This document shows, piece by piece, positions 7,375 through 54,902 of a DNA stretch of 64,000 bases. Under the pieces are notes generated by a model, which saw nothing but the letters and a program-made list of their open reading frames with translations, made no database searches and was not told where the DNA came from. Position numbers and translations under genes: made by a program. Source of the DNA: Oleisolibacter albus (GTDB lineage Bacteria > Pseudomonadota > Alphaproteobacteria > Azospirillales > Azospirillaceae); NCBI RefSeq assembly GCF_003336875.1, contig NZ_QGNJ01000004.1, positions 62,001-126,000 of the forward strand. The letters are read 5' to 3'. Positions within the stretch are counted from its first letter, which is position 1. The number at the start of each line of letters is the position of its first letter.

Positions 7375-7546
7375 GGCCGTTCTCCGGTGCCGTGGTGGAC
7401 ACCATTGAATCATGGTGTCCACATGGTGTCCACCAAAATTGGAATGTTGGGGAATCTGCCGCGATAGAGCGGCACAGAAAACGCCGTGAAATCAGTAAGT
7501 TATGGACATAGAGAGACAACAGGAAACGCCACGAAACAGCCGACAA

Positions 7547-7791: not shown

Positions 7792-7868
7792 GGCCCCGTA
7801 GCTCATCAGGATAGAGCGCGAGTTTCCTAAACTTGAGGCAGCAGGTTCGAGTCCTGCCGGGGTCACCA
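7792..7868 (+). tRNA. tRNA-Arg(CCT)
   Basis: 77 nt with CCA encoded. The acceptor GGCCCCG pairs with CGGGGTC (one G-T), D arm GCTC/GAGC, anticodon stem CGAGT/ACTTG with loop TTCCTAA (anticodon CCT), T arm GCAGG-TTCGAGT-CCTGC, discriminator A. It reads the AGG codon. This gene lies outside the island. Confidence 0.95.
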
Positions 7869-39467: not shown

Positions 39468-39875
39468 CTATTTGGCGGCGCCCCGCACCTTCTCCACCGA
39501 CCGGGCGCCGACATAGCCCAGCATCACCCACTGGAACAGCTCCACAATGTCGGTCGGGATGGCGGCCAGCCAGGCCTGCATGCCGGCCGCCACCGCCTTC
39601 GCCGTCTCCGGCGCGAAGGCGGAGAGCACGCCCATGGGTAGTGAGGCCAGGATCAGGGCATAGACCACATAGAGGAAGGTCGGCCGCGCCCGGCTGGTCC
39701 AGGGATCGGCGCTCTGCGCCTCGGCCAGGATGGCCGACAGCTGCACCTTCACCTCTTCCAGCGCGCCGGCCTGCTGCTGGCGCAGCAGCTCCAGCTTGGC
39801 CGCTTCCCGCGCCTTTTCATCGGGCAGGACCCGGTCGATGACGGCCATCAGCGGGGTCAGCAAGGCGTCCCACAT
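39468..39875 (-). CDS. 3TM-type holin
   Basis: 135 residues from the ATG at 39875, preceded by GGAGG; an ATG at 39887 overlaps the muramidase stop. Charged N-terminal helix (LLRQQQAGALEEVKVQLSAILAEAQS) typical of the 3TM_holin family, then hydrophobic helices FLYVVYALILASLPMGVLSAF and DIVELFQWVMLGYVGA. It probably forms pores that let the muramidase reach the wall. Last gene of the tail locus, 7 nt from convergent dapB. Confidence 0.78.
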   Translation of the reverse strand: MWDALLTPLMAVIDRVLPDEKAREAAKLELLRQQQAGALEEVKVQLSAILAEAQSADPWTSRARPTFLYVVYALILASLPMGVLSAFAPETAKAVAAGMQAWLAAIPTDIVELFQWVMLGYVGARSVEKVRGAAK

Positions 39876-39886
39876 GGGTGCCTCCA

Positions 39887-40420
39887 TCACGGGGTCAGGA
39901 ACAGGGCGCGCTCGGCCGCCCGGCGGCGGACCAGGCCGGGCAGCACGCGGCCGCCGGCCCGGCACCAGCGCGGGAATTCATCCGCCGCGCCGGCCGTGTC
40001 GCCGGCCAGCAGCAGGCGGCGCAGGGTGGAGCCGCCCAGGGCGTCCAGGCCGATATTGTAGGCCAGGCTGCCCAGCGCGGCGAACTGGTTATCCGTCAGC
40101 GGGACGGGGCAGAGCCGGACGATGCCCGTCTCCACAGTGGCCAGGTCCTGGCGCAGCAGGGCGTCTGCGTCGGCCAGGGTCATGCCGGCCGGCCACAGGC
40201 GCCGCCACGCGGCCATGGCCGCGGCACGGTCGGCCCCGCCGCGCAGCTGGCGTCCGCCGTCGGTCAGGGCATGGCCCCAGCCGACGCTCCAGACGCCGGC
40301 CGGGCACAGGGCGGGCTCCAGCGTTGGTGTCGAAGGGTCGCCGTCATGCAGCCCCTCGAAGGATTTGATGAGGTCGAGTCCCGGCGCGTTGATGCGCCGG
40401 GACCGGTCCATGGTGGGCAT
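39887..40420 (-). CDS. Phage-type muramidase (GH24-like endolysin)
   Basis: 177 residues. Catalytic Glu in LIKSFEG (E22) and the conserved VWSVGWGHALT strand, then QFAALGSLAYNIGLDALGGSTLRRLLLAGD and the RWCRAGGRVLPGLVRRRAAER end that is the norm for phage lysozymes. There is no signal peptide, so it needs a holin to cross the membrane; two holin genes flank it. It frees the particles by cell lysis. Confidence 0.88.
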   Translation of the reverse strand: MPTMDRSRRINAPGLDLIKSFEGLHDGDPSTPTLEPALCPAGVWSVGWGHALTDGGRQLRGGADRAAAMAAWRRLWPAGMTLADADALLRQDLATVETGIVRLCPVPLTDNQFAALGSLAYNIGLDALGGSTLRRLLLAGDTAGAADEFPRWCRAGGRVLPGLVRRRAAERALFLTP

Positions 40421-40445
40421 CTGCCCCTCCTTGTCGGCACGGAAA

Positions 40446-40463
40446 GCCCGCCGGCAGGCGGGC
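40446..40463 (-). repeat. GC hairpin between holin and muramidase genes
   Basis: Arms GCCCGCC and GGCGGGC with a 4-nt loop; on the minus strand it is followed by TTT. It may be a weak terminator or attenuator that sets the ratio of holin to muramidase. Confidence 0.4.
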
Positions 40464-40469
40464 GGGGGA

Positions 40470-40808
40470 TCAGGACGCGTCGGCCGCGCCCTTGCGGCTG
40501 GCCGGCGCCGACCGGTCCAGCAGCCGCCAGATCACGGCTTCGGTAAAGCCGGGTCCGAGATAGCCGGCGACCACGATACAGGCCGTGGCCTGCCAGCCGG
40601 CCAGGCCCAGATAGTCCGCCACCCCCTGGCCGATGACGCCGGTGCCGACGGCAATCGGCAGCTCATAGAGCAGGCTCATGGACAGGAAGGGCCGGCGTCC
40701 ACGCTGGGCAGCGCTGGCGCGGTACATCAGCCGACCGACCAGCGCCCACAGGAAGGCCAGAAGCCCTCCCATGACCGTCTCGCCCGGCGGCAGGGTCTCC
40801 AATGGCAT
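40470..40808 (-). CDS. LydA-like phage holin
   Basis: 112 residues. Two or three transmembrane helices: MGGLLAFLWALVGRLMYR, LYELPIAVGTGVIGQGVADYLGL and ACIVVAGYLGPGFTEAVIW. This pattern matches LydA/holin superfamily members placed next to endolysin genes. Charged C-terminus. Second holin of the lysis set. Confidence 0.75.
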   Translation of the reverse strand: MPLETLPPGETVMGGLLAFLWALVGRLMYRASAAQRGRRPFLSMSLLYELPIAVGTGVIGQGVADYLGLAGWQATACIVVAGYLGPGFTEAVIWRLLDRSAPASRKGAADAS

Positions 40809-40938
40809 CGCGGGATGCCTTTCCGATCTGCGGAATTGAGGGCCGCTCTGACGTTCGAGGGCCGGCGAGGGGAGGGCGCCAAGCCCTGCCCTCTACACCA
40901 CGCGGGGTGTTCCTCGCATTGAGCGGGCTGACAGCCGC

Positions 40939-41661
40939 TCACGCAATGCCGTCGGGCCAGGCGACCCCGTTCAGGATCTGATCGACCTCATGCACCGTTT
41001 CGGCCGTCATCACCGCCCTTTTGGCGGCAAGCCGCGGCCCTTCAATGGCCGCAGCACGATTGTTGAAGGCGCGGGCCTTTTCGAGAACGACAGCGGCGAC
41101 ATCGCCAAGGGTTTCGGCGGGCTGTCCGTCGGCAAGGCGTCGGGTCGTGCCCACCTCGGCGCTCAGATAGGGGTACTTGTCCGACGACGTCAGGGTGCTG
41201 TCAGCCTCATCAATGGAGCTGGCCTCGGCAGCCTTGCCATCATAGACCATAGCCATGCCGCTTCCGCCGGTGATGATCTTCAAGCGGTGATTTTCCGCGG
41301 CCGCGTCGAGGCGCTGAATGGCCAGCGTGCGATACGTTTCGAGGTCGATGACACCGGGGGCACCATTCGTCGGCATGGGATCGGGCCATGCAATCTCCTT
41401 GGCCGCGTAGGCACGCAGAACCGCCGCCGGGATGTCATATGAGGAAGTGAACTGCTCATACTCCGCGGGAACGAGTGTCCCGAGACCGGAAGCTGCCATA
41501 TGCACGTAGCGGCTGATGTAGGACGATCCTATGGCCGACAGGGCGACCACCGCGAAAAGGAAATCATGGGTCACGCGGCCATCGCTCTGCACGTGAGTGC
41601 CAGAGGCGAAATCCCGCTCAACAATGTTTCGAAGAGCCGTAATAAGATCAGGGGTGGGCAT
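40939..41661 (-). CDS. Tail-locus accessory protein of unknown function
   Basis: 240 residues, soluble, no signal peptide. Helix-rich; the second half (ETLGDVAAVVLEKARAFNNRAAAIEGPRLAAKRAVMTAETVHEVDQILNG) resembles phage proteins that sit between fibre and lysis genes, such as DUF4376-type tail-assembly factors. A good RBS (AAGGA) precedes the ATG at 41661. It follows the AT-richer fibre block and probably belongs to it. Function not known. Confidence 0.55.
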   Translation of the reverse strand: MPTPDLITALRNIVERDFASGTHVQSDGRVTHDFLFAVVALSAIGSSYISRYVHMAASGLGTLVPAEYEQFTSSYDIPAAVLRAYAAKEIAWPDPMPTNGAPGVIDLETYRTLAIQRLDAAAENHRLKIITGGSGMAMVYDGKAAEASSIDEADSTLTSSDKYPYLSAEVGTTRRLADGQPAETLGDVAAVVLEKARAFNNRAAAIEGPRLAAKRAVMTAETVHEVDQILNGVAWPDGIA

Positions 41662-41815
41662 CCTATATGTCCTTCTTTCATTAGGCTGTAGGGGAGGGGA
41701 TAGTGCTGCCCGTGGCGCATCCGGAAGTCAGAACAACTATGCCATATCCTCTCTGCAGAATGATAATTGCGTGAATTCAATTAAAATAAATCATGGTATT
41801 GTGTGTATTTTGCTG

Positions 41816-42547
41816 CTAATAGCCAGTCACGTCAACGAGCAGGATGTTTGTTGAGAAATTCATATCTTTGTATATGTCTGGGACTATTCCTTTTCCCTCT
41901 ATCGTTCGTTCGTATAGAACATATACTTTTCCTGTTGTCTCTGTTGTTGTCATGAGGATGCCGGCATACCAGAAAAGCTTTGGCTTGGGGTCGGATGGGG
42001 GCGATTGCAACTCGCTTTGTTCGTATACAACCTTGGACTGACAAAATGCAGCAATTTTTCTACCCGAAAAATCTGCGATGGAACTCCTGAAGACACCAAG
42101 AGGCAGTGACTCCTGGTAGATCAAATCCCGGACAACGAGTGGCTTGTATGCCGAGCTCATGCGCAGCCGACCAGCGGCATCATACACTTCGATTCCGGTG
42201 CCACCCGATACTGTCGCCTGGGCCTGGTCGAAGAAGAAGCACTCCAGCGGTTGGCTACTCGTGGTGACGATATCCCAACTCCAGGTCTCCACGGCACCAA
42301 CGATTTGCGATGACGTGCGCAGGACAGAAAATCCGCTATTCGGTGCATGAACAAACATCAATGGGGTGGAAATGGCCGAGCCGACATATTGGACGGTAGC
42401 TTTTCGGATTATTCCAAGCAATCCACCCTTCACAGGATAGGTTTGGTTTGGGATCACTGTCTGCTTTTGGACGAAAGCAAGATTTGAGGCGTTCTCATCA
42501 ATCTGAACAGTCCCATTGTTCGCGTAGGAGACAAATCCGACGGGCAT
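41816..42547 (-). CDS. Tail-locus protein of unknown function, possible fibre accessory
   Basis: 243 residues with mainly beta-type sequence, no signal peptide. The first 25 residues (MPVGFVSYANNGTVQIDENASNLAFVQK) look like those of the next gene upstream (MPQGLQIFAPDGSTLLDANTV), so both share a small N-terminal module that may attach to the tip. The G+C content is far below that of neighbouring tail genes, suggesting recent transfer. Likely a receptor-binding or cap protein; this is inference. Confidence 0.5.
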   Translation of the reverse strand: MPVGFVSYANNGTVQIDENASNLAFVQKQTVIPNQTYPVKGGLLGIIRKATVQYVGSAISTPLMFVHAPNSGFSVLRTSSQIVGAVETWSWDIVTTSSQPLECFFFDQAQATVSGGTGIEVYDAAGRLRMSSAYKPLVVRDLIYQESLPLGVFRSSIADFSGRKIAAFCQSKVVYEQSELQSPPSDPKPKLFWYAGILMTTTETTGKVYVLYERTIEGKGIVPDIYKDMNFSTNILLVDVTGY

Positions 42548-42550
42548 GGC

Positions 42551-42877
42551 TCAGTACTCTCCGTAGAAGATCGTTGCATGGGTGTAATCCAGGCTTACGA
42601 CTTCGCCATCTGGCAGCTGTCTGCTATATATCAAAACTGATCTGTTGGGATTAGTGTCGCCTGAGCCGACAGTCACATCGTGAAATTCTCCATTTGCAAC
42701 CACTGTCCACCATAATTTTTTGTTTTGATCTTTGTTTACAGTGATTTCCCCATATGACGGAGAGTGAGGTATTTCTTCCTTGGAAAGACGGAGCATCCCT
42801 ATCTGCCTGGACGTAACAGTATTGGCGTCGAGCAGCGTCGATCCGTCCGGGGCAAAAATCTGCAATCCTTGTGGCAT
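42551..42877 (-). CDS. Small tail-tip accessory protein
   Basis: 108 residues with beta-type composition. It shares the N-terminal pattern of the 243-residue gene downstream and lies 3 nt before it and 4 nt after the giant tip gene, so all are co-transcribed. AT-richer than the tip gene. No known function; the position is that of a fibre or tip-associated protein. Confidence 0.5.
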   Translation of the reverse strand: MPQGLQIFAPDGSTLLDANTVTSRQIGMLRLSKEEIPHSPSYGEITVNKDQNKKLWWTVVANGEFHDVTVGSGDTNPNRSVLIYSRQLPDGEVVSLDYTHATIFYGEY

Positions 42878-42881
42878 GGTG

Positions 42882-45800
42882 TCACCATATCCCTAATCGC
42901 ACCCTCAAGGTGCCGTTACTGTCGAAGACCTGAATTAGGGAGTTGTTGATCTCCATCCTTTGACCCGTCTCAGAGTTTTTGATCACAAGCTGGTTGTTAT
43001 CCAGATCGAAGTAAGTAAGCCCGTTTGTCGACTGCAACTTGCCAGTCTTGATTGATGCCCCGTCGATCTGGGTCACGCCTGCGGGCTGCCACAGGGGGGG
43101 CGTCGTCTGGTTCGGGAGCACCTCGGCCAGCATGCATTGTGTTGCAATACAAGTCGGGTTGCCCTCCCCAATGCCATACATGCGCAGGGCAAAGACAACT
43201 TTTGTGCAGTCGGCCGGGACGGTCACGAACCCCTCGGTCCGGCCGAAGGCGTCGATGCGCGTCCCGCCCCAGGCCCCCTGATAGAGGGGGGCGAGCGGAG
43301 AACTGCCGATCTGGTTCCCGGCATCGTCATAGAACCAGAGGAACACGGTTGCGGCACAGCGGATGGCCCCGATCCGGGCGCCGTAATAGTAACGGGCGCC
43401 GGGGGTGACGGAGTAGCCACCACCCTCCATGCCAGCGTTGACGACCTCGACGAACTGATCCGTGGGGACCGGCGTTGCCGTATTGGCCGCGATGTAGAGG
43501 GCATGGCTACCGACCGGGGTCCTGCCCTCCGGATCAACGCCGGAGGTTGCCGTTCCCCCGACAATATTTCCGGACGCCGTGGGCTGGCCCCAGCAGCGCA
43601 AACCCCAGGAGCCATCGCTGTTCTGCAGGAGGTTCGGAGAATTCCCGACAGCCAGCTTGTCCGCGGTGATCGCGCCGGTGGAGATCTTGTCGGCCGTGAT
43701 GGCGTTCGCGGCCAGCTTGCCGGTGGTTATGGAGCCTGCGGCCACATGGTCGGCCGTCACGGCATTGGCCGCGATCTTGTCGGCGGTAATGGCCCCGGCC
43801 TTGATCTTGCCGGTGCTGATGGCGTTGTCGACGATCAGTGTTTCGCCAACGGCGCGCCGGAAGACAGCATTGCACCAGTAGGCATCCGATGGGAGCGGCT
43901 CTCCCGCATCAACCATCAGGATAAAACGTAGGGATTTGATGTCGGACGGTACGGTCCACTGGCCCTCAAGGAAAACCCACTGATTGGTCGCGTAGGTGTG
44001 GCACGGCCAGGCGTAATAGGCGACGGACCCGTCTCCGCGCCGGGCTTCGATGTATATGCCCGCCGGACCAGCATTCGTGTTCCAGACATGGGCCGCGACG
44101 TAGTAGGTCTCGCCCTCGACGACCGGGATAACCTTGTCCCAGGAAAGGGATCTGGCGCGTGTGCGTATCCTTGTCGGGGAGACCGGGTCCGAGGGGGTGC
44201 TTTCAATAGAGAAGGAGGCGCCGCTGGCCGTCCAGCCATCCATGCTAAGCTGGTCATTAAGGGAGAACCGCGGATTGGTGATGATGTTGCTGGCGTCGGC
44301 AATCGCCAGCCGGCTTGTCGTGATAGCCCCGGCAGCCAGCTTGTCGGCGGTGATGGCGCCCGCAGCGATCTTGTTTGCGGTTACGGCGTTGGCGGCAATT
44401 TTGTCTGCGGTTACAGTACCAGCCGTAATCTTGTCGGCCGTAATGGCATTGGCCGCGATCTTATCGGCGGTTATGGCATTGGCTGCAATCTTGTCAGTGG
44501 TTACAGCACCGTCGACAATCATCGAGGCGTTAGCCGCTCGGCGCATAACTACGTTGGACCATAGAACGTCGGGCCGGTTCCCATACTCACGTTCAGTCTG
44601 TAGGTCCAAACGTATGAAGAAAACACCGTCCGGAACAGTAAACCGGGCCTCTAGCAGCGCCCACTGGTTTTTTGTATTTGTGCCAACGATGTATGCGTAT
44701 CCGAGAACGGAATTTTGTGGTGTGCGCTGCTCGATAACGATGTTTGCACTGGCGGCTTGGTCCGTGTTGTATACGTGGGCAGCGATATAGTACGCCTCAC
44801 CCGGCAATACCGGTATATGCTTGGCCCAAAAAACATCACGGGAACGACCGATGATCCGTGTGCGCGCAACCGGATCGCTACTGGCCTGTTCTACCGTGTC
44901 AAAAGGACCTACCAGCCAGCCCTCAGTGCTTGGTTGCCCATTCACCTCAAAGCGCGGGTTCGTGATGATATTGCTGGTATCCGCAACTACCAGCGCCTTG
45001 GCAGTTACCGAATTTGCAGCGATCTGGTCCGCCCCGACGGCACCGGCGGCGATCTTTGCAGCGGTTATGGCATTGGCTGCAATCTTGTCAGCGGTTACAG
45101 CGTTAGCTGCCAATTCATCGGTGGTTACCGAATTTGTACTCAAGTGCAACGCTGTAACCGAATTTGCAGCGATTTGGTCTGCACCAACAGCGCCAGCGGC
45201 GATTTTGCCAGCCGTAATGGCATTGGCCGACAGCTTATCCGTGGTTACGGCATTGGCTGCAATCTTGTCGGCGCTGACCGCACCGTCGACGATGAGGGAG
45301 CCGCTGGCTGCCCGTCGCCAGACAATGTGGGTCCAGTAAGTATTATTGTAAGTCCCCTCAAGCCCGTGCCCGTTGTTTATGATAAGGCGTAGATACATGA
45401 CATCGGCAGGTACCGTGTATTGTGCCTCCAACAGCACCCACTGGTTTTTGAGGTCTGTGCTGGCAAGCGTTGGATAGCCAACCGGGAATTTTGTACCATT
45501 CAACGTTTCTACCAGCAGGCGCGCGGGGGCTGGATCTTCCTGGAACGCATAGGCGGAAAAGTAATAGGTCTCCCCTGCACTCACAGGCACGTATGCGCCC
45601 CAATACGCTTCGGCATTGGTGCCAACCAACCTGAATGCGGAGATACCGGCCCCCGGATAGTAATCAGCACGGGCATCGCCGTTCAGTTCCCATCCCTCGG
45701 TACTCAGCCGGCCATTCACCTCAAAGCGCGGGTTCGTGATGATATTGCTGGTATCCGCGATGGCGATGGATTTTGCCGTAATGGCATTGGCCGCGATCTG

Positions 45801-48800
45801 GTCCGCCCCGACGGCACCGGCGGCGATCTTTCCGGCTGTAATGGCGTTGGCCGCCACCTTGTCGGCCGTGACCGCGCCGGCCGCGATCGTCTCTGCCACG
45901 ACCGCGTTGGCCGCCAGCTTCGGTGTGGAAACGGCACCGTCAGCAAGCTGCGTCCGGGTAATCTGCCCCGCCAGGTCGGCAGTATCGACGTCCAGCGTGT
46001 AGCCGCTGTTGTCGGCCTTCTTGCGGTAAAGCTGGCCCTGATAGACCACCAGGGCGGGAGAAGAGGCCGTCGCCTGCAGGGAGGTCACGGCAATCGGGAC
46101 GACCATGTCGGTCGCCAGCTGGTCGGCTTTGATCTTGCCGACGAGATTGGCGGTATCGACCTCCAGCGTGTAGCCGCTGTTGTCGGCCTTTTTGCGGTAC
46201 AGCTGGCCCTGATAGACCACCAGGGCGGGAGAAGAGGCCGTCGCCTGCAGGGAGGTCACGGCAATCGGGACGACCATGTCGGTCGCCAGCTGGTCGGCTT
46301 TGATCCTGCCGACGAGATTGGCAGTATCGACCTCCAGCGTATAACCGCTGTTGTCAGGCTTCTTGCGGTACAGCTGGCCCTGGTGGACCACCAGGGCGGG
46401 GGATGATGCGCTCACCGCCGTGGGCACCTGTGCCACGACGATAGGCGGGGCGATGTCCGACGCCAGTTTCGCCGCACCGACCGCCGCATCGGCAATATCC
46501 GCGGCGGCGATCAGCGGCAGCATGTGCGGCCCGGTGGAAAGCCAGGGGCCGTAATTGCCGCTGGTATCGACGTAGCGTGCCGAGAAATACTGCGCCGAAC
46601 CGGGCGCCAGCCCGGTCACCGGGATAAAGCTGGCCGCCACGGCGCCGGTCGGCGCCACGGTCACCCGGGGCAGCGCGACATCCGTCGCACCGGCAGAAGG
46701 CGAGCCGTCCGCATTCGGCGGGGTGCTGTTCCGGACCAGCTGAAGAAAGCTGTAGTCCAGCCCGACCAGGCCAGCGGGCGCCAGGACCGAAACATAGGCC
46801 GCCGACGGGGAGAGCGCCACGGAGATTGAGCCGGGGGCCGCCGGGGCCACCGTGTCCTTCCCCGTGGTGAAGGTCAGCGTGTTGCTGTAGGCGCTGCGGT
46901 TGCCGTTGGTATCGACGGCCAGAACCTTGGCGTTGATCGCCGTGTTGGCGGCATAGGTCCGCGGGATACGGAACTTCACCGCGGTGTCTTCGCCCTTGGG
47001 GACGGGGTAATAGTCCCACTGGCTGTCGGCCAACAGCTTGACGGCCACCTCATAGCTGTCCAGGTCGGCGTCGGCGGGCGCTGACCAGCGCAGGGTGACG
47101 GCGGTGCTGCCGTCCGCATGGGGAACGCTGCCGGCGGCAAGGTTGCCCGGGATGCCCGGCGGAACCGTATCGACCGTGGACCCGACAACAACCGACAGCT
47201 GGCCGGACATGTTCAGCCCGTCCGTCCCGAAGATGTCGTAATGGGCCGCGCGGACGTAATAGGTGCCGCCGGGCTTCGGCACGATGATCAGGCCACCGCC
47301 ATCACCATCATAGACGAGATTGGCCGCTCCGGGCGCAAAGCCGTCCTCAGCGGAAATCCAGACCTGTGTGCCGGCGTAATCCGCTTCGGTCGGGCGGGCA
47401 TAGGCGACGGAGATGGCCCCGGCCCGGGAGTCGACCGCCAGACCGGCCGGGGCCGCCGGGGCCGGGTTGGTCAGGGTTGCCGTCGCCGGGTCTCCGACCG
47501 GGTCTCCGGTCGCGTCCAGCAGCTGCACGGACAGGGTCAGGCTGCGCGCCAGCGCCACGCCCGCGGCGGCGGCATCGGCCACGTAGCGGTCATAGGCATA
47601 GGCGAACCGGGCTTCGGTCACGGTCTGTGTGCTCAGAACCGTGGTTCCGTGCAATACCTGCACCTGGAAGCCGCCGAAATAGGCGGAGTCGGTGGCAAGG
47701 GTGCTGTCCCAGACGGCGATCAGATCCGGCGTCGTCCAGGCTCCGCCCTCGGGGCGGACATTCGTGGCTGCCCCGGCGGGTTCAACCCCGACCGTGACCT
47801 CCGCCTCCACCGTGGGCGACCGCCGGCCGTCGGCGCTTTCAGCCCAGAGCCGGCCCAGCCAGGGGCCCTGCGCCACCGCGGTCAGGCGGAAGCCGGTCGG
47901 CGTGTCCGGCGTGACCGTGCGCCAGTCCCCGGCCGGGCTTTTCAGCTGCAGCACATAACGATCCACCCGCCTGTCATCCAGATGCAGCGGATTCCAGCGT
48001 CCGTCCAGCCGGGTGACCCAGGCGCCGCCCTGCATGACCAGATCGGTCGAGAGGGTGAAGCCGGTCGGGGCCGGCAGCCGGTCGATGACGATGCCCGGAT
48101 CGAAGGGCGGGATGATCCCGGCGTCGGCCTGATGGATCTCGGGGGCCAGATCCACCAGCTCCAGCTTCGCCGTCAGGTCGGCGCCGGGGTAGATGCCTTT
48201 CACCAGCAGCGGCACCGTCACGCGCCCGGCCTCGCCGAAGGCGAACAGGTCCCCCTCCTTCACCGCCGCCGGCAGGGCCGACGTCAGCTGCAGCCGCGTG
48301 GCCTCTCCTGGCACCGTGGTCAGCGGCACCTCGGTCACACCCAGCGTATGGCGGATACGCAAGGCATAGCGCTTGCCCTCCTCCATCGGGCAGGCCTCGT
48401 CCGCCTCGATCGACAGCCGGTCGGCCCCGATGCCCGTGATGCGGCCGGAACTCAGGCCGACCAGCATGACGTCGTGCTGTACATCCACCCGGTCGCCCCG
48501 GCGGACGATGAGGGACTCCACGTCCTGGTTCAGCTCGTAGATGCTGGGGCGCAGGCGCAGCTGGGCCAGATGATAGCGGCCGGCCTTGTGGACCTGGTCG
48601 GCATTGGTGAGGCCGGGCAGATCCAGCACCTCGTACAGGGTGGCGTTGGCCTCGCTGTAGCCGTCGTCGAACACCAGACGTTCGGCGGTCTTGTAGTCGG
48701 CCTTCTCATCGGCGAAACGGCAGCGCAGGGCGTGCGGAATGTCCGCAAAGAGTCGTGTGAACTTGAAGCCCCAGCTGTTGCGCGGCGTGATCACGGTGAC

Positions 48801-50399
48801 CGGCACGTCCTGCGGCACGTCACGGACCACGCTGTATTTGGCGTCACGGACCTGGAACTGGGCCCGGCCGACGGCGGCGATCTGCTTCAGCCGCTCGAAG
48901 ACCGTCCCGGCACCGTCCAGAACGGCATCGTAGGTGTAGCCGGCCGCGGCACAGGCTTCATGCCAGGCCGCCAGGGTCGGCCAGTCGATCTTGTGGTCGG
49001 CGGCAGGACGCAGATTGGCGGGGCCGCGCGCCACCCACAGGAACAGGCTTGCCGGATTCCGGGTCGGACGCTCCACCCAGGTGCCGGTGGCCGCATCGTA
49101 ATCCGGGCAGATCCGGGTCGCGATCAGGTTGAAGTTGGACACGGTGCCATTGATCTGGCCCGACGCGCGGATGCGCATGGCCACCAGGGCATGGGGCACA
49201 CGTGTCTTCAGCGGCGCCTCGTTCAGCACGGCGCGCGCCGCGGCCCAGACCATGCTGTCGCTGTATTTGCTGTTGCCGTCATGGTCGATCAGACGGCGCA
49301 CCCGGACCTGGTATTTGCCGCGGGCCACGGCCACGCGGGTGCCGCGACGCAGCAGACTGTTGTCCGTTTCGGCATAGACGCGCAGCACGCCGGGCGAAAA
49401 GGAGTCATCCGTGGGAAATGCCGTCCAGTTCTCCGTCCCGACCGGGGCGTACTGGCATTCCACCGCAGCTTCCGTCGGTTTGCGGTTGCCACCCCCAGTG
49501 GTCCTCCACACACCGGTCGGGAAGATGAAATCCAGGCTCAGCTCGTCCGCATCCTGATCGATGGCGCGGGTAATCCAGCCGTCCTTCTGGCGCAATACGC
49601 CTTGCGGCAGGCCGACGCCCTGGCCAAGCTCCTCCACCGTTCCGGGGAACAGGGCGATGGGCGCATCGCCGGGAAAACCCTGGCGGATCTCCAGTTCCAC
49701 ATCGCTGTAGTCGGACAGCGGTGTGTCGCCCAGACGCATGCTGGCCCGGTCGATCTCCAGCGGCCCCGGACCCAGATCGAACAGGATGCGCACGTACTGA
49801 TCTTCGCCCACGACCTCCGTATAGGGCTTCGCCGCGTATCGGGGCGCCCAGCGGTGGCGTCCCAGCGGCACCGGCACCAACCCATAGGGGCTGGCAGCAT
49901 TGTTGGCGTCGATGCTGTAGCGTTTCTCCATCTGGTCCGCCGACAGTTTAGGCGGCGGGATCAGCATGTTCAGCGCCATCATGCCGACGCTCGAGACGGC
50001 AGCCGTCGTGAGAGCCGTGGCCGTGGCCACACTGGTCCCCAGCGGCGCCGCAAGCTGGGCGCCATAGACCTGCCCCGTCCAGACTGAAATGGCCACGATC
50101 ACTAACGTCGCTACGATGCGGAGCGCGTTCTTGCCCCCCTGGCCGCCACCACCGGCCGGCAACGCGCGCACGGATAGCAGCTGGCCCGGACGGGGCAGCA
50201 CCTCGGCCCAGCGCGCACGGGGGACACACCAGTCGTCCAGCCAGACCGTGGCATCGCAGGCCTGCCGCAGCAGGCCCTGGCCGGTCAGAATCTCCAGTAC
50301 GGAGCCGCCGGCAGGCACTTCGGCGCGGACCAGATCGGAGGCAAAGGGTTTCGCCGCCGCCGATAACCGGATCGGCAGCGCGTTCTGGGTGTCAGCCAT
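42882..50399 (-). CDS. Giant tail-tip / host-specificity protein (TipJ-like, lambda J family)
   Basis: 2505 residues, about twice lambda J. Residues 1-90 look like the ubiquitin-fold piece that is separate (gene I) in lambda; hydrophobic segments follow near 115-165. The hub part includes GFKFTRLFADIPHALRCRFADE and the FAD-like beta region to about 800, then fibronectin-type III repeats up to about 1290. From about 1309 come three 57-residue tandem repeats, then many NAITADKIAA-type repeats separating four jelly-roll-like modules (each opening with SNIITNPRF or a variant). The end carries a short trimeric-type tip (GTLRVRLGIW). The modules probably bind cell-surface sugars and set target range. 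Confidence 0.85.
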   Translation of the reverse strand: MADTQNALPIRLSAAAKPFASDLVRAEVPAGGSVLEILTGQGLLRQACDATVWLDDWCVPRARWAEVLPRPGQLLSVRALPAGGGGQGGKNALRIVATLVIVAISVWTGQVYGAQLAAPLGTSVATATALTTAAVSSVGMMALNMLIPPPKLSADQMEKRYSIDANNAASPYGLVPVPLGRHRWAPRYAAKPYTEVVGEDQYVRILFDLGPGPLEIDRASMRLGDTPLSDYSDVELEIRQGFPGDAPIALFPGTVEELGQGVGLPQGVLRQKDGWITRAIDQDADELSLDFIFPTGVWRTTGGGNRKPTEAAVECQYAPVGTENWTAFPTDDSFSPGVLRVYAETDNSLLRRGTRVAVARGKYQVRVRRLIDHDGNSKYSDSMVWAAARAVLNEAPLKTRVPHALVAMRIRASGQINGTVSNFNLIATRICPDYDAATGTWVERPTRNPASLFLWVARGPANLRPAADHKIDWPTLAAWHEACAAAGYTYDAVLDGAGTVFERLKQIAAVGRAQFQVRDAKYSVVRDVPQDVPVTVITPRNSWGFKFTRLFADIPHALRCRFADEKADYKTAERLVFDDGYSEANATLYEVLDLPGLTNADQVHKAGRYHLAQLRLRPSIYELNQDVESLIVRRGDRVDVQHDVMLVGLSSGRITGIGADRLSIEADEACPMEEGKRYALRIRHTLGVTEVPLTTVPGEATRLQLTSALPAAVKEGDLFAFGEAGRVTVPLLVKGIYPGADLTAKLELVDLAPEIHQADAGIIPPFDPGIVIDRLPAPTGFTLSTDLVMQGGAWVTRLDGRWNPLHLDDRRVDRYVLQLKSPAGDWRTVTPDTPTGFRLTAVAQGPWLGRLWAESADGRRSPTVEAEVTVGVEPAGAATNVRPEGGAWTTPDLIAVWDSTLATDSAYFGGFQVQVLHGTTVLSTQTVTEARFAYAYDRYVADAAAAGVALARSLTLSVQLLDATGDPVGDPATATLTNPAPAAPAGLAVDSRAGAISVAYARPTEADYAGTQVWISAEDGFAPGAANLVYDGDGGGLIIVPKPGGTYYVRAAHYDIFGTDGLNMSGQLSVVVGSTVDTVPPGIPGNLAAGSVPHADGSTAVTLRWSAPADADLDSYEVAVKLLADSQWDYYPVPKGEDTAVKFRIPRTYAANTAINAKVLAVDTNGNRSAYSNTLTFTTGKDTVAPAAPGSISVALSPSAAYVSVLAPAGLVGLDYSFLQLVRNSTPPNADGSPSAGATDVALPRVTVAPTGAVAASFIPVTGLAPGSAQYFSARYVDTSGNYGPWLSTGPHMLPLIAAADIADAAVGAAKLASDIAPPIVVAQVPTAVSASSPALVVHQGQLYRKKPDNSGYTLEVDTANLVGRIKADQLATDMVVPIAVTSLQATASSPALVVYQGQLYRKKADNSGYTLEVDTANLVGKIKADQLATDMVVPIAVTSLQATASSPALVVYQGQLYRKKADNSGYTLDVDTADLAGQITRTQLADGAVSTPKLAANAVVAETIAAGAVTADKVAANAITAGKIAAGAVGADQIAANAITAKSIAIADTSNIITNPRFEVNGRLSTEGWELNGDARADYYPGAGISAFRLVGTNAEAYWGAYVPVSAGETYYFSAYAFQEDPAPARLLVETLNGTKFPVGYPTLASTDLKNQWVLLEAQYTVPADVMYLRLIINNGHGLEGTYNNTYWTHIVWRRAASGSLIVDGAVSADKIAANAVTTDKLSANAITAGKIAAGAVGADQIAANSVTALHLSTNSVTTDELAANAVTADKIAANAITAAKIAAGAVGADQIAANSVTAKALVVADTSNIITNPRFEVNGQPSTEGWLVGPFDTVEQASSDPVARTRIIGRSRDVFWAKHIPVLPGEAYYIAAHVYNTDQAASANIVIEQRTPQNSVLGYAYIVGTNTKNQWALLEARFTVPDGVFFIRLDLQTEREYGNRPDVLWSNVVMRRAANASMIVDGAVTTDKIAANAITADKIAANAITADKITAGTVTADKIAANAVTANKIAAGAITADKLAAGAITTSRLAIADASNIITNPRFSLNDQLSMDGWTASGASFSIESTPSDPVSPTRIRTRARSLSWDKVIPVVEGETYYVAAHVWNTNAGPAGIYIEARRGDGSVAYYAWPCHTYATNQWVFLEGQWTVPSDIKSLRFILMVDAGEPLPSDAYWCNAVFRRAVGETLIVDNAISTGKIKAGAITADKIAANAVTADHVAAGSITTGKLAANAITADKISTGAITADKLAVGNSPNLLQNSDGSWGLRCWGQPTASGNIVGGTATSGVDPEGRTPVGSHALYIAANTATPVPTDQFVEVVNAGMEGGGYSVTPGARYYYGARIGAIRCAATVFLWFYDDAGNQIGSSPLAPLYQGAWGGTRIDAFGRTEGFVTVPADCTKVVFALRMYGIGEGNPTCIATQCMLAEVLPNQTTPPLWQPAGVTQIDGASIKTGKLQSTNGLTYFDLDNNQLVIKNSETGQRMEINNSLIQVFDSNGTLRVRLGIW
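43100..45760 (-). repeat. Four related receptor-binding-type modules with ITADKIAA linkers
   Basis: Within the tip gene, modules of about 150 residues start near 45755, 44980, 44295 and 43655. The first three share SNIITNPRF, GETYYxxAxxx and NQWxLLEAxxTVP; the fourth is divergent (SPNLLQNSDGSWG). They are separated by 6-15 copies of short degenerate repeats of the AANAITADKIAAGA kind. Duplicated modules like these can swap by recombination. Confidence 0.75.
45961..46473 (-). repeat. Three tandem 171-bp near-identical repeats in the tip gene
   Basis: The phrase GTATCGAC and everything after it recur at 45982, 46153 and 46324, a strict 171-bp (57-codon) period. The first two copies are almost identical in DNA and the third has a few changes. 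They encode GQLYRKKADNSGYTLEVDTANLVG and a linker. Recent tandem duplication; copy number may vary between strains. Confidence 0.9.
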
Positions 50400-50848
50400 C
50401 AGAGTAGATCCCGGTGACGGTAGATTGCGATAAGGGTGGCGGCATCGCGGCCGCCGCGGATGGGCGCGACCGCGGCATCCACCCGCTCTTCGGTGTGCAG
50501 CATGCTGTCCGGGGCGACGACGATGCCCACATGGCAGGGCCAGCGCAGCCGGCGCATCAGCACCACATCGCCCGGCTGTTCCAGCGTCTGCCAGATCAGC
50601 GGGTCGCGCAGGCTGGGGCGGTGGGCGATACGCACCCAGGGGGCACCGCTATGGGCCTCCACCGCCCTGGCCATGGCCGCCCGGTCTGTTGCTTCGGCGG
50701 GCGTGTCCTCGGCATAGTCGGGCACATTGATCCCGAACTGCCGGCGCAGCACCAGGGCGACCAGCCCCCAGCAGTCATAAGCTTCGGGCCCGCGCCCCCC
50801 GTGACGGTAGGGCAATCCCACATAGGCCCCGCACCAGCCCGGCAGCAT
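50399..50848 (-). CDS. NlpC/P60 peptidase-type tail protein (lambda K position)
   Basis: 149 residues. Catalytic Cys in YDCWGLV, His in WPCHVGIVV, and the PYRHGGRGPEAYDC entry typical of the C40 family. It lies between the DUF1833-like and tip genes, as gene K in lambda and gp14 in gene transfer agents. It probably helps tip assembly or cuts peptidoglycan. It overlaps its neighbours by 1 nt each. Confidence 0.88.
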   Translation of the reverse strand: MLPGWCGAYVGLPYRHGGRGPEAYDCWGLVALVLRRQFGINVPDYAEDTPAEATDRAAMARAVEAHSGAPWVRIAHRPSLRDPLIWQTLEQPGDVVLMRRLRWPCHVGIVVAPDSMLHTEERVDAAVAPIRGGRDAATLIAIYRHRDLL

Positions 50849-51315
50849 CAGAACACCGCCGGATGGGTGGAGGGCAGGAAGCTGTCGGCCGGAAACGGCT
50901 CGGCCAGCAGGCTTTCCCAGGCCAGGGTGCCGGACACCTGCACGGCATCCACGTCGGCCGAGGCCAGGCGGAATTCCAGCGGCCCGGCCTCCAGCACGTC
51001 GGGGGCGGACGCCAGCACCACGGAAACGCGGACCGTCGGTGCGGTGGTCAGGGCACGGATGGTTTGCGCCATCTCCCGGCCGACATTGTCGATGCTGAGC
51101 TTCACCTCCGGCAGGGAATCGTCGGTATCCGCCGGCAGTTCGATAGTGAAGGGCAGTGCCGTGTAGGTATGGCCGTTGCTGACCGTGTCCACGGCATCGC
51201 TGCTGAAGCGCAGGGGGCCGTCGATGATCTGCGGATGCTCGATCTCGATCAGGATCAGAAAGGCGTCGCCGGTTTCCTGGGCGAAGGTGGCGGATCGGAA
51301 GCTGGGCGTCGGCAT
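50848..51315 (-). CDS. DUF1833-like distal tail protein
   Basis: 155 residues, beta-rich. The IEIEHPQIIDGPLRFSSDAVDTVSNGHTYTALPFTIELPADTDDSLPEVKLSIDNVGREM region is the DUF1833 pattern found at the L position of siphophage tails. It probably links tape measure and tip. 1-nt overlaps on both sides. Confidence 0.78.
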   Translation of the reverse strand: MPTPSFRSATFAQETGDAFLILIEIEHPQIIDGPLRFSSDAVDTVSNGHTYTALPFTIELPADTDDSLPEVKLSIDNVGREMAQTIRALTTAPTVRVSVVLASAPDVLEAGPLEFRLASADVDAVQVSGTLAWESLLAEPFPADSFLPSTHPAVF

Positions 51316-51674
51316 CAGGGCATCTCCTCCAGCTGGATGGTCACGCGGTAATGGTCAGGCCCGATCTGTTCCCATTCCGGCGGCTGATTGGCCACGAACC
51401 GGTAGTCCGCTGCCGCGCCGGTGACAGGATGGCGGGCGCTGAAGCGCAGGGTGCCGCCCGCGGTGGTGACCCGCCAGAACGTCTCCAGCGTCTGCCATTG
51501 GGCGGTATCGAGAACGAAGGAGCGGCTCGACGATTGGGTGGCGGCCGTGAAACGGCGCCGCTGCTTGGCCGGGCCGGCCTCCATGGCGGTGCGCAGACCC
51601 GTGGTGCCGAAACGGCCGGTCGTCCCCAGCAGGGGATAGACCGGCAGGGTGGACGGCCAGGACAAGGGGGCCAT
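51315..51674 (-). CDS. Minor tail protein (lambda M position)
   Basis: 119 residues with beta-type sequence; the pattern TLETFWRVTTAGGTLRFSARHPVTG is common in small distal-tail proteins next to tape measures. It overlaps the DUF1833-like gene by 1 nt and starts 3 nt after the tape measure gene. Assignment rests mostly on position. Confidence 0.65.
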   Translation of the reverse strand: MAPLSWPSTLPVYPLLGTTGRFGTTGLRTAMEAGPAKQRRRFTAATQSSSRSFVLDTAQWQTLETFWRVTTAGGTLRFSARHPVTGAAADYRFVANQPPEWEQIGPDHYRVTIQLEEMP

Positions 51675-51677
51675 GAT

Positions 51678-52631
51678 TCAGCTCCGGCGGATGGGGGAAC
51701 GGGACAGGCCGTAATTCGACTGCATGTCGCGGTCGGCACGGCCACTGTTGAAGCGTTTGGTGACGGCCCGGTCGGCGATCTGCTCGACTATGATTTCCAG
51801 CTGGCGCGAGCCGTCGGCCCCCGTGCGTTCCTCCGCCTGCGTGTGGACGCCGGGTGCGTTGTTGTTGACGACGACCTGAAGTCCTCCCCCTGCGCCCGCG
51901 CTGGCGGCGCTGCTGTAGGACGGGGCCTGCAGCGCATGGTTCGGGATGATGCTGCCGCTCGTGCCGGGCAGGAACAGTTCCGGTCCCCGTTCGCCGACCA
52001 GATAGGCGCTGCCGGCCGACACGGGGCCGCCACCGGCCCGCGCGCCGCCGAAGCCCGTCAGGGTCGGCAGACCGGCACTGGGAAACAGGGAATTGATCAG
52101 GGGATTGAGGATCGCCATCTTCATCATGGAGGCGGCGATATCTGCCGCGGCATTCAGGGCCGTCGTCCTCAAGGCCTTGAACGCATTCTCGCCCTTGGCC
52201 AGGGCGTTCACGAAGGCGTCACCCACGCCCGACAGTGAGTCGGTCAGCTTCTTGTTGAGTTCTTTGGTGCCGTCATATTGCGACTCGATGGATTCTTTCG
52301 CTTTGTTGTAAGAATCCTCGCCGCTGTATTGGACAATGGCTTCCTTGTTATCTTCAAGCTCTTTGAGTTCTCTCTTCCTCTTGTCCTCGGGACTGCCGAA
52401 TTCGTTGCCGATTTTCTTCACATAGTCGTTCGGTTCTCCGCCGGCCTTGCCTCCATTCGCCGTTCCGTCGGACCCGGAGCCCTTGCCGAGGGCCCCTTTC
52501 AGCTTTTCCGCGGCCTCGCCCAGGCTGTTCAGCGCCTTGGTGCCGGTGTCCTTGAAGGCCGCAACGGCCTGGACCAGCTCTTCGATGTTGGGCGGGACCT
52601 GGGCGGAGGTCGCGTCTGTATCTGCCATCAT
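51678..52631 (-). CDS. Short tail tape measure protein
   Basis: 317 residues (ATG 52631 or 52628). Charged helical first half (EELKELEDNKEAIVQYSGED-type), then a hydrophobic stretch (AAADIAASMMKMAILNPLINSLFP), then the conserved C-terminus GGPVSAGSAYLVGERGPELFLPGTSGSIIPN seen in lambda-type tape measures. Tape length sets tail length; 317 residues would give roughly 45-50 nm by the usual 0.15 nm per residue, short for a siphophage and close to gene transfer agents. Confidence 0.85.
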   Translation of the reverse strand: MMADTDATSAQVPPNIEELVQAVAAFKDTGTKALNSLGEAAEKLKGALGKGSGSDGTANGGKAGGEPNDYVKKIGNEFGSPEDKRKRELKELEDNKEAIVQYSGEDSYNKAKESIESQYDGTKELNKKLTDSLSGVGDAFVNALAKGENAFKALRTTALNAAADIAASMMKMAILNPLINSLFPSAGLPTLTGFGGARAGGGPVSAGSAYLVGERGPELFLPGTSGSIIPNHALQAPSYSSAASAGAGGGLQVVVNNNAPGVHTQAEERTGADGSRQLEIIVEQIADRAVTKRFNSGRADRDMQSNYGLSRSPIRRS

Positions 52632-52676
52632 GTCACCTCATCTTGCCGTCTCTGCACGATTGCCGGCTGGCGGAGG

Positions 52677-52704
52677 CATGGCCGGCCCATCCGGGCCGGC
52701 CATG
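52677..52704 (-). repeat. Perfect 12-bp inverted repeat between chaperone and tape measure genes
   Basis: Arms CATGGCCGGCCC and GGGCCGGCCATG with a 4-nt loop, and no T-run on either side. Such a stable hairpin inside an operon may slow decay of, or limit read-through into, the tape measure mRNA. Confidence 0.7.
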
Positions 52705-52708
52705 GGGA

Positions 52709-52921
52709 TCACGCCACCCCCCGCTGCTCCAGCCGGTGACGGAACCGGTTGAAACGGTCACGGCGCAGCATGGCCGCCGCGTCCGGGTCGCCCCGGCTCA
52801 GCCGCCATTCGAAAAGAGCGGCGGCGAACTCATGGTGGGTGGCATCCCAGAAGGTCCGGGGCGGCTGGGCCAGAACACCGGCCCAGATGCCCAGCAGGCG
52901 GCGGTAGGGAAACGGCTCTAC
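52709..52921 (-). CDS. Second tail assembly chaperone frame (Phage_TAC_6-like), no normal start codon
   Basis: 70 codons open from GTA at 52921 to TGA at 52711-52709. The translation VEPFPYRRLLGIWAGVLAQPPRTFWDATHHEFAAALFEW matches the small GTA/siphophage chaperone family (core W near 13 and FWxxTxxEF). The frame is -1 to the upstream chaperone gene and open across its 3' end, but has no ATG, GTG or TTG in the 100 nt before the match. It is probably made by -1 ribosomal frameshifting from the upstream gene, as lambda G-GT, or from a rare start such as CTG. Confidence 0.7.
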   Translation of the reverse strand, partial: VEPFPYRRLLGIWAGVLAQPPRTFWDATHHEFAAALFEWRLSRGDPDAAAMLRRDRFNRFRHRLEQRGVA

Positions 52922-53289
52922 GCCGCTCCCGCCGCCGCCATCGCTTCCCCCGCGGAATCCTCCCGCGGCGGCTGGCCGCCGGTCAGCATGTTGGCCAGCA
53001 GCTGGGATGCCGGATGGATACAGGCGGCAAGGCCGGTCTGGACCACCAGCGTTCCCACCTCGTCGCGCGACAGCTCCGTCCCGGCTCCCTTCAGACCGGC
53101 CCAGATGATTGCGGCCATCTGGCTGGTCCGCAGGGTTGCCGCCCCTTTGGCCAGGATTGCGGAGGCCAGATCGGTGACGCCGCAGCCGAGCGCCTCCTCC
53201 AGCTCCACCATGGCCCCGAAACTGGGGCGCATGGTGTAGGGCCGGCCCGCCAGGGTGAGACTCACCTCACCCGCATGGGGGTTCGCCAT
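52918..53289 (-). CDS. Tail assembly chaperone (GTA TAC family)
   Basis: 123 residues. SLTLAGRPYTMRPSFGAMVELEEALGCGVTDLASAI is the standard start of the gene-transfer-agent family (Phage_TAC_11), which holds the tape measure during tail assembly. The last 25 residues are low-complexity (GEAMAAAGAA) and lie over the -1 frame of the next coding segment. It follows the tube gene by 11 nt. Confidence 0.82.
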   Translation of the reverse strand: MANPHAGEVSLTLAGRPYTMRPSFGAMVELEEALGCGVTDLASAILAKGAATLRTSQMAAIIWAGLKGAGTELSRDEVGTLVVQTGLAACIHPASQLLANMLTGGQPPREDSAGEAMAAAGAA

Positions 53290-53300
53290 GGGCTGGCTCC

Positions 53301-53729
53301 TCAGCCCGCCGACGGCGTCAGCCGGGTCAGGGCGGCCGCGGGGGTCAGGGCCAGCGTGTAGGACGTGACGTCCAGCGTCGGCGCGGTGATCTTCAGGCTG
53401 GACACATAGAAGCCGCCCTTGTAGCCGTTGCCCGCGGCATCGAACAGGATCTGGCAGTCATACGGGGAGCGGGCGGCCCAGGCCGCTTCGAGCTTGTCCA
53501 GCTGGGCCCGGCTGCCGCGCAGCTTGCCGGAGCAGTTGACGACACCGCTGACGGAGACCGGCACATTGGTGACCCAGCCGCCGCTGTCCTTGGCGGTGGT
53601 TTCGATCATCTTGGCCGAACCATCGAAGCTGGTGTCGGTCTGCCCTTCCAGGGTGGTGTAGCCGGTGGCGCCGGTGGCGGTGTTGCCGATCTGCAGAAGG
53701 CACTCGGTACCCTTGACCTCAACGGCCAT
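53301..53729 (-). CDS. Major tail tube protein (TP901-1-like)
   Basis: 142 residues. GTECLLQIGN... EGQTDTSFDGSAKMIETTAKDSGGW is the pattern of TP901-1/GTA major tail proteins. It should polymerise into the tube. One chain, no Ig-like extension. The ATG at 53729 has an AGGAG RBS. Confidence 0.88.
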   Translation of the reverse strand: MAVEVKGTECLLQIGNTATGATGYTTLEGQTDTSFDGSAKMIETTAKDSGGWVTNVPVSVSGVVNCSGKLRGSRAQLDKLEAAWAARSPYDCQILFDAAGNGYKGGFYVSSLKITAPTLDVTSYTLALTPAAALTRLTPSAG

Positions 53730-53772
53730 GGTCTTCTCCTGACTGTGGTGGATGTGGGGAAAGGTCCGACGC

Positions 53773-54234
53773 TCAGGCTACGGCCTGGGCGTCGGTTTCG
53801 CTGGTGGCATAGCGGACGCTGTATTCCAGCCGCTTGGCGGCCGTGGCGTCGCCGATGTCGACGTCCTCCGGCGGAGGGGCCGTGCGCACCAGGGAAACCT
53901 GCTGTACGAGGCCGTCCAGGCCGCCGATGGCGGCGATGGCGGCCTCCACCTCGGCACAGAGCGTGTCGAGGCTGTCCTCGGCCCCGCGGTCGTCACCGCG
54001 CGCGGCACATTCGACGACCAGGGTGAGGGTGCGGAGATGGCGTCCGGCCTTGTCGGCCGGCACCGCCGTTTCGGTGTCGGTGTACAGGGCGATGCCGGGC
54101 AGCTGCCCGGCCGTATGGTCCCACGGGGTCCGCTTGGCCGGATAGATCCGGTTGCCGGACGTGGGAAGCCCGGTCAGATCCGCGACCAGCCGGTCGCGGA
54201 TCTGCTGTCGAACATGGGGCATGGGGTGCTTCAC
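53773..54234 (-). CDS. Tail terminator protein
   Basis: 153 residues. VRQQIRDRLVADLTGLPTSGNRIYPAKRTPW and GIALYTDTE fit the lambda U/gp10-type tail terminator that caps the tube at the head end. It is the first gene of the locus; ATG at 54234 with GGAG about 8 nt before, or 54222. In a headless particle this protein would close the tube. Confidence 0.72.
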   Translation of the reverse strand: MKHPMPHVRQQIRDRLVADLTGLPTSGNRIYPAKRTPWDHTAGQLPGIALYTDTETAVPADKAGRHLRTLTLVVECAARGDDRGAEDSLDTLCAEVEAAIAAIGGLDGLVQQVSLVRTAPPPEDVDIGDATAAKRLEYSVRYATSETDAQAVA

Positions 54235-54254
54235 TCCAGGCAGGGGTCGCCGTG

Positions 54255-54277
54255 CCGGTCCGCCCTGGGCGGACCGG
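54255..54277 (-). repeat. Perfect 10-bp hairpin in the tail-operon leader
   Basis: CCGGTCCGCC and GGCGGACCGG with a 3-nt loop, 20 nt before the first tail gene. It could affect translation of the first gene or be part of an antitermination structure. Confidence 0.6.
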
Positions 54278-54342
54278 TGTGCTGTGTCTTGGACGGCGGG
54301 GCCGTCCGCGGGACATCAGGGCTGTTGACGAAAGCCAGAACG

Positions 54343-54378
54343 AAAAAGGGCCTGCCCCGGAGTCCGGTGCAGGCCCTT
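54343..54378 (-). terminator. Intrinsic terminator inside the leader of the tail operon
   Basis: Stem AAGGGCCTGC / GCAGGCCCTT extended by CCGG-ACT-CCGG, followed on the minus strand by TTTTT. It lies between the promoter at 54442-54470 and the first tail gene, so transcripts should stop here unless antitermination occurs. Confidence 0.8.
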
Positions 54379-54441
54379 CTGTTTCGTCGTACCGTTCATC
54401 GCTGCGCCGCCACAGGGCGGACGATGGGCGATGTTGAGGTG

Positions 54442-54470
54442 ATCCTGCCAGCGTCCCGCCCGGGCGTCAA
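54442..54470 (-). promoter_or_regulatory. Candidate sigma-70 promoter of the tail operon
   Basis: TTGACG (54470-54465), 17-nt spacer, CAGGAT (54447-54442) on the minus strand. The -10 is weak, so an activator may be needed. An inverted repeat GACCT-TATTC-AGGTC (54491-54505) lies just upstream of the -35. Confidence 0.6.
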
Positions 54471-54596: not shown

Positions 54597-54902
54597 CTGT
54601 CTCTGCTGCATTCTGGTTTCGGATCGTGGCGGCCCGACCTGTCCGGCTGATCGGGATCGCGCGGGATAAGGATGCAAGGGCGCATGGGTGTGCGTGGTCC
54701 GGCCGCAGTTCCCGTCGGCACTGCTGTCCCGTGCCGGGCGGAAGGCCGCCGTGTCCTGGTCGTGCCCCGGTCATTATGAACCGGTATTGAACTGCGACAC
54801 GCTGTCTCGACAGCCTCCCTCACTTTTGGCTAGGGTCGCGTGCGCCGCGTCTGTGCGCCGGCTGCCCGGCAGCGGATTGGACGAGGGCGCAACGGGGACG
54901 CC

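What the first reader, a model, noticed from the sequence alone, without database searches (positions are those of the whole stretch)
39468..54470. Headless tail locus: candidate non-contractile (F-type) tailocin in an alphaproteobacterium
The sequence shows, in order on one strand, tail terminator, tube, chaperones, tape measure, distal-tail proteins, NlpC/P60, tip protein, fibre-type genes, and two holins with a muramidase. There is no terminase, portal, capsid, protease, integrase or replication gene, and the locus ends directly at dapB on one side and at an unrelated gene on the other. There are no sheath or baseplate genes, so it is not an R-type. A tail-only set with its own lysis genes is how F-type pyocins are built. 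The tail genes resemble gene transfer agents, but a GTA would need head genes. A lost prophage is the main alternative; intact frames argue against decay.
Basis: partly seen in the sequence, partly recalled or inferred. Interest (0 to 1): 0.9.

Follow-up and report, generated by a model that had tools for sequence, protein, structure and literature searches.

The report
Headless phage-tail locus, possible tailocin
An alphaproteobacterium carries genes for a short flexible phage tail and for cell lysis, all in open reading frames but with no phage head genes beside them, so it may make headless tails that kill related bacteria, a kind of weapon already described once in this bacterial class.

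Summary
Window 39468-54222 (minus strand) carries a siphophage tail set (terminator, tube, chaperones, tape measure, tail-tip proteins, NlpC/P60, 2505-aa J-like tip with carbohydrate-binding modules) and holin/lysozyme/holin, all in open frames, next to dapB. No capsid, portal, terminase, integrase or replication gene was recognised; the contig is 362 kb, so this is not an assembly edge. The genome's one lambda-type portal lies in a separate headed prophage with unrelated tail terminator and tube.

Best reading: an F-type (non-contractile) tailocin candidate from a lambda-like prophage. A recently truncated prophage is nearly as likely. The tube gene is in 2 of 11 genomes of the genus and 3 of 82 of the family; the other two carry it in headed prophages. 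The tape measure is short (317 aa), no regulator is present, and the one LexA-like box fits the neighbouring gene at least as well.

In a class survey, 2 of 26 assessable tail-terminator loci were headless: this one and one in another family, which two species share at one site with mostly low dN/dS. An alphaproteobacterial F-type tailocin is already known (rhizoviticin), so this is a candidate new member of a known kind.

The parts
53773..54222 (-). tail terminator (phrog_4204)
   Evidence: 47% identical to the terminator of the headed prophage of G008
53301..53729 (-). major tail (tube) protein, PF06199
   Evidence: 65% and 59% identical to G008 and G050
52918..53289 (-). tail assembly chaperone, PF11836 (GTA-gp10 type)
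52709..52960 (-). second chaperone frame, overlapping the first, PF09550-like; start or frameshift site not determined
   Evidence: E 4.9e-4, below the curated cut-off
51678..52631 (-). short tape measure protein, 317 aa
   Evidence: BLAST homologues align within residues 69-311
51315..51674 (-). probable distal tail protein, phrog_384 (filed by PHROGs under head and packaging)
   Evidence: place in the gene order
50848..51315 (-). DUF1833 minor tail protein
50399..50848 (-). NlpC/P60 tail-tip peptidase
42882..50399 (-). 2505-aa J-like tail tip and receptor-binding protein with three CBM_4_9 stretches
42551..42877 (-). accessory ORF, phrog_2427
   Evidence: no match in the phage collection
41816..42547 (-). 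accessory ORF, phrog_4062
40939..41661 (-). accessory ORF, phrog_32459
40470..40808 (-). LydA-type holin, PF16083
39887..40420 (-). phage lysozyme (endolysin), PF00959
39468..39875 (-). GTA-type 3TM holin, PF11351
54346..54378 (-). terminator-like hairpin followed by TTTTTC, upstream of the tail operon
   Evidence: fold z -4.9; not listed by the terminator scan, whose total was at chance level
54778..54792 (-). exact GTTC-N7-GTTC (LexA-like) box between the tail operon and the PycTM gene
   Evidence: the same motif lies about 90 bp upstream of recA in 8 of 9 recA loci of the genus

Best explanation
The locus is the tail-and-lysis half of a lambda-like siphoprophage that has lost its head, DNA and integration halves and is kept as an F-type tailocin. 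Shown: tail and lysis genes in open frames, no recognisable head genes beside them, no att-like repeats, no head remnant found upstream. Inferred: DNA damage or another signal turns the operon on; the 317-aa ruler sets a tube of roughly 45-50 nm; the terminator caps it; NlpC/P60 and J form the tip, whose carbohydrate-binding modules bind a surface polysaccharide of a related cell; holins and lysozyme burst the producer; the bound tube depolarises the target. No step from expression onwards was tested.
For: Tail set and three lysis genes, all open. Terminator, DUF1833, NlpC and phrog_384 proteins align over nearly their full length to phage homologues. The break lies just before the terminator gene; the 684 bp upstream, searched against the loci held by then, gave only one weak 22-aa match, in two near-identical contigs (E 0.019), besides itself. 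Internal to a 362-kb contig. PF04860: 0 matches; the single PF05136 portal belongs to a prophage on contig C40 with unrelated terminator and tube. A LexA-like box and a stable hairpin sit upstream. A second headless tail locus, at one site in two species of another family, has dN/dS of 0.18 or less in 5 of 7 tail genes compared, so such loci can persist.
Against: Tube gene in 2 of 11 genus and 3 of 82 family genomes, the other two in headed prophages. No regulator gene in the locus. The tape measure matches only the C-terminal part of homologues. The LexA-like box is 555 bp from the terminator gene with a terminator-like hairpin between; its distance (110 bp) and orientation relative to PycTM resemble those at recA, so it may serve PycTM. 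An exact box occurs about once per 38-55 kb anyway. The promoter and terminator scans of the region found no excess that stands out from shuffles (6 against 3.0 with sd 2.2; 9 against 9.6). One genome only, so selection on this locus could not be tested.
Confidence: 0.45

Rival explanations
1. A recently truncated prophage: one deletion removed the integration, replication and head half, leaving the tail-lysis half by accident, not yet decayed and not used.
For: Sporadic occurrence and headed closest relatives; what follows dapB varies across the genus (G002 and G005 share one arrangement), so this is a rearranging site; no regulator; short tape measure; hairpin before the operon.
Against: Open frames throughout, including a 7.5-kb gene; the break falls between genes with no remnant found; lysis genes kept.
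Confidence: 0.37
2. The tails are used by another element in the cell: heads of the C40 prophage or of a mobile element join these tails.
For: A headed siphoprophage is present on C40.
Against: Its terminator and tube share no significant similarity with these, and it has tail genes of its own by reading.
Confidence: 0.05
3. A reduced gene transfer agent.
For: GTA-type chaperones and 3TM holin; a short ruler, as recalled for GTAs.
Against: No PF04860 portal in the genome; lambda-J/DUF1833 tip; no head genes in the locus.
Confidence: 0.03
4. A functional tail particle used other than for killing kin, for example for binding or delivery to another organism.
For: Three carbohydrate-binding stretches in J.
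Against: No cargo or toxin family stands out among the matches of the locus's proteins; nothing specific supports it.
Confidence: 0.06

Closest known systems
Rhizoviticin of Allorhizobium vitis VAR03-1 (PMC10811719; abstract, passages and sections 18, 19, 21, 23 seen)
   Same: Headless siphophage-type tail plus lysis genes in an alphaproteobacterium, derived from a prophage; related headed prophages exist.
   Different: Rhizoviticin keeps an early region with a LexA-family repressor, replication genes and an integrase remnant; five genes of that region are reported as needed. It is about 164 nm long. This locus has no such region and a ruler that predicts a much shorter tail. Protein similarity to rhizoviticin was not tested.
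F-type pyocin of Pseudomonas aeruginosa and monocin of Listeria (recalled; named in PMC10811719)
   Same: Non-contractile tail without a head, with lysis genes (recalled).
   Different: Those are established in their hosts with known regulation (recalled); this one is in a single genome with no dedicated regulator in the locus.
   Same: Tube 65%, terminator 47%, chaperone 45% identical.
   Different: Has capsid, decoration protein, S49 protease, portal and terminase upstream.
Headless tail locus in genomes G228 and G470 (unnamed, another family of the class)
   Same: Terminator, tube, chaperone, tape measure and tip genes in order, with no head gene recognised in the stretches read.
   Different: 31-41% identity in tube, chaperone and a part of the terminator; genes with weak sugar-transferase and methyltransferase matches between terminator and tube; no lysis gene recognised.

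Membership tests
F-type tailocin | non-contractile tail gene set | tested here: met
F-type tailocin | no head or DNA-packaging genes for the particle | tested here: met
   none recognised in the locus or in 20 kb on each side of the window (the last two by reading); portal families PF04860 and PF05136 searched in the whole genome; other portal types, terminases and capsids not searched genome-wide
F-type tailocin | own lysis cassette | tested here: met
F-type tailocin | open reading frames | tested here: met
   the tape measure is open but lacks the N-terminal part of its homologues
F-type tailocin | SOS or dedicated regulator control | tested here: inconclusive
   LexA-like box upstream, but at least as well placed for PycTM and expected about once per 38-55 kb; no regulator gene
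F-type tailocin | kept as a headless locus in relatives (usual, not strictly defining) | tested here: not met
   tube gene missing from 9 of 10 congeners, in a headed prophage in the tenth; no second strain of the species available
F-type tailocin | bactericidal headless tail particles | not testable with these tools
   needs induction, microscopy and killing assays
Gene transfer agent | head genes with an HK97-type portal (type recalled) | tested here: not met
   PF04860: 0 matches in the genome
Intact prophage | integrase, replication, terminase and capsid genes | tested here: not met
   the integrase at 6100-7374 lies 32 kb away beside tRNA-Arg and I assign it to another element

The most novel reading that the evidence does not exclude
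A minimal F-type tailocin with a very short (about 45-50 nm) tube and no dedicated regulators, one of several independently headless siphophage tails kept by alphaproteobacteria; the G228/G470 locus would be a second, longer-kept case.
Probability: 0.3. Interest if true: 0.6.

Novelty: new member of a known kind. Interest (0 to 1): 0.42.

Why it matters
F-type tailocins are described as rare in PMC10811719, whose authors regard the one from this class as an early evolutionary stage. A pared-down locus with a short ruler would show how little is needed, and the two headless loci found here make the frequency of tail domestication in the class testable.

Tried and rejected
Gene transfer agent: disfavoured, no PF04860 portal in the genome. 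Tails shared with the C40 prophage: no significant similarity of terminator or tube. Assembly edge: locus internal to the contig. att-like repeats at the two ends: longest shared word 10 bases, typical of random window pairs. Head or neck remnants upstream: none convincing. tRNA-SeC call at 41014-41100: lies inside an open frame on the other strand and is not found by Rfam at gathering score; treated as false. Rfam on the upstream region: 8 matches up to E 1, all far below gathering scores. dN/dS between the three CBM modules of J: synonymous sites near saturation, not informative. Empty insertion site: not shown; what follows dapB varies in the congeners, and PycTM was found in no fetched congener stretch. 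PDB sequence searches: tube, terminator and J gave nothing useful; NlpC matched peptidases weakly; the tape measure matched one solved tape measure protein (E 2.1e-4). The order-level search repeated the same 82 genomes.
Full report
WHAT IS THERE. On the minus strand, from 54222 down to 39468, lie in order: tail terminator, tube, two chaperone frames, tape measure, phrog_384 protein, DUF1833 protein, NlpC/P60, a 2505-aa J-like protein, three accessory ORFs, LydA-type holin, lysozyme and GTA-type 3TM holin. The second chaperone (52709-52960) scores below its Pfam cut-off and its start is not settled. PHROGs files phrog_384 under head and packaging; I read it as distal tail from gene order. dapB (plus strand) ends 7 bp from the last gene. 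About 680 bp upstream of the terminator gene a plus-strand PycTM-type gene starts (54903-55463). The 20-kb stretches on both sides of the window hold host-type genes, and on the left the edge of a tRNA-Arg element, by reading of predicted proteins.

HEADS. The genome was searched with two portal families: PF04860 gave 0 matches and PF05136 gave 1, on contig C40. That prophage has terminase, portal and capsid (Pfam) and its own tail genes (by reading). Its terminator and tube do not match ours significantly. Other portal types, terminases and capsids were not searched genome-wide.

RELATIVES IN GENOMES. The tube protein was found in 2 of 11 genomes of the genus and 3 of 82 of the family, own genome included. 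G008 has capsid, decoration protein, protease, portal and terminase upstream; G050 has head-type genes by reading. dapB was found in all 11 genus genomes. Ten stretches of 16-20 kb around dapB, from 9 of the 10 congeners, held no tail gene and none of the right-flank genes. What follows dapB varies: G002 and G005 share one arrangement, one of the two G009 copies has related genes in another order, the rest differ.

RELATIVES IN VIRUS COLLECTIONS. Viral contigs with the tube: 5 loci, one of them this same locus as a 15,996-base record; L037, L039 and L040 have head-type genes by reading, L038 was not read. With the terminator: 12 loci, again including this one; of the other 11 I read only L143, which has head-type genes. 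With DUF1833: 4 loci including this one; of the other 3 I listed genes for L150 and L152 without settling their heads. Phage records: terminator 6, all Roseobacter phages at 31-36% identity; tube 0; tape measure 3; DUF1833 57; first accessory ORF 0; lysozyme 1, partial.

CLASS SURVEY. phrog_4204 matched 28 of 385 class genomes, own genome included, at 33 places. I had context for 31 of 33 (30 stretches, plus the window); two sit on contigs of about 3 kb and were left out. Of the 31, four weak matches lie inside 901-1459-aa frames and were dropped, and one (G302) is too near a contig end. Of the remaining 26, 24 have head-type genes upstream by reading of predicted proteins (G371 rests on one protease-like gene), and 2 have none: this locus, which is the starting point, and G228. 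Of the 24 only L071 was checked with Pfam.

THE SECOND HEADLESS LOCUS. In G228 the terminator follows a copper amine oxidase gene; then come genes with weak sugar-transferase or methyltransferase matches, then tube, chaperone, tape measure, tip and J; the contig ends soon after and no lysis gene is recognised. G470, same genus, is the only other of 17 family genomes with this tube, and has it at the same site. A terminator search of the same 17 genomes matched 4: G228, G470, G096 (headed, in the survey above) and G466, where the stretch read ends just beyond one neck-type gene, so its heads are not settled. By a simple Nei-Gojobori count: tube 142 of 142 identical with dS 0.13; chaperone dN/dS 0.18; two tail-tip proteins 0.05 and 0; J 0.10 over the part held; NlpC 0.58 on very few changes (dS 0.016); tape measure 0.46 on a poor alignment. 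Flanking host genes have dS 0.25-0.63; one flanking and one sugar-type gene were mispaired (identity 0.36 and 0.29) and are set aside. The terminator was not called in G228 by my gene finder and was not compared; genes at the far end lay outside the G470 stretch. Lower dS in tail genes may mean gene exchange. Heads elsewhere in these genomes were not searched.

CONTROL REGION. The window's only exact GTTC-N7-GTTC (motif recalled) is at 54778-54792; with up to one mismatch the window has 39 sites against 29.3 in shuffles. The motif lies about 90 bp before recA in 8 of 9 recA loci of the genus, the ninth with one mismatch (recA was found in 9 of 11 genomes at the threshold), so it is a plausible LexA box here. 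But 3 exact boxes occur in 164 kb of this genome, 5 in 192 kb of congeners, and shuffled windows average 0.98; one in this gap by chance has a probability near 1-2% by my arithmetic, and its distance and orientation fit PycTM at least as well. G228/G470 have no exact box before their terminator. A stable hairpin with a T run lies between the box and the tail genes, though the terminator scan did not list it. A weak promoter-like TTGACG/CAGGAT pair just upstream of the hairpin is my own reading and was not listed.

TAPE MEASURE. At 317 aa it aligns by BLAST only to the C-terminal part of homologues, whose genes measured here are 621, 713, 817, 982 and 983 aa. G228's 574-aa tape measure gave no match to ours. 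A ruler of about 0.15 nm per residue (recalled) gives 45-50 nm, as recalled for GTAs. Whether this is a deletion or a natural short form is not known.

LITERATURE. [quoted passage not shown]). Listings for tailocin with Azospirillum (5 papers), Niveispirillum with prophage (1), at least two of tailocin, genome-wide and Rhodospirillales (15 of 196 shown), F-type tailocin (16), rhizoviticin (7) and at least three of tailocin, F-type, siphovirus and short tape measure (5) show no title or abstract start reporting this locus; apart from PMC10811719 these papers were not opened. Only openly licensed PMC papers are held.

VERDICT. The anatomy is sound and the tailocin reading is reasonable, but distribution and regulation do not yet separate it from a fresh prophage remnant.

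Noticed in passing
window 1-7400, tRNA-Arg at 7792-7868: Probable integrative element beside tRNA-Arg with an integrase, RepB-type primase, HTH proteins and a type I-like methyltransferase/HSDR_N protein.
   Followed up: partly
window 54903-55463: PycTM/2TM effector-type gene next to the tail locus; no match in the congener stretches fetched, and a LexA-like box 110 bp before it.
   Followed up: partly
L101 from 19175; L105 from 6770: Upstream of the G228/G470 headless tails a pair of TGGACAGATTGG repeats is kept in both species while nearby sequence differs: a possible operator.
   Followed up: no
L071 8063-8727: In the C40 prophage a Phd/VapC-like toxin-antitoxin pair, by reading, lies between the tube and chaperone genes.
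   Followed up: no
window 43800-46450: Three 57-residue tandem repeats and three diverged CBM modules inside the J-like gene.
   Followed up: partly
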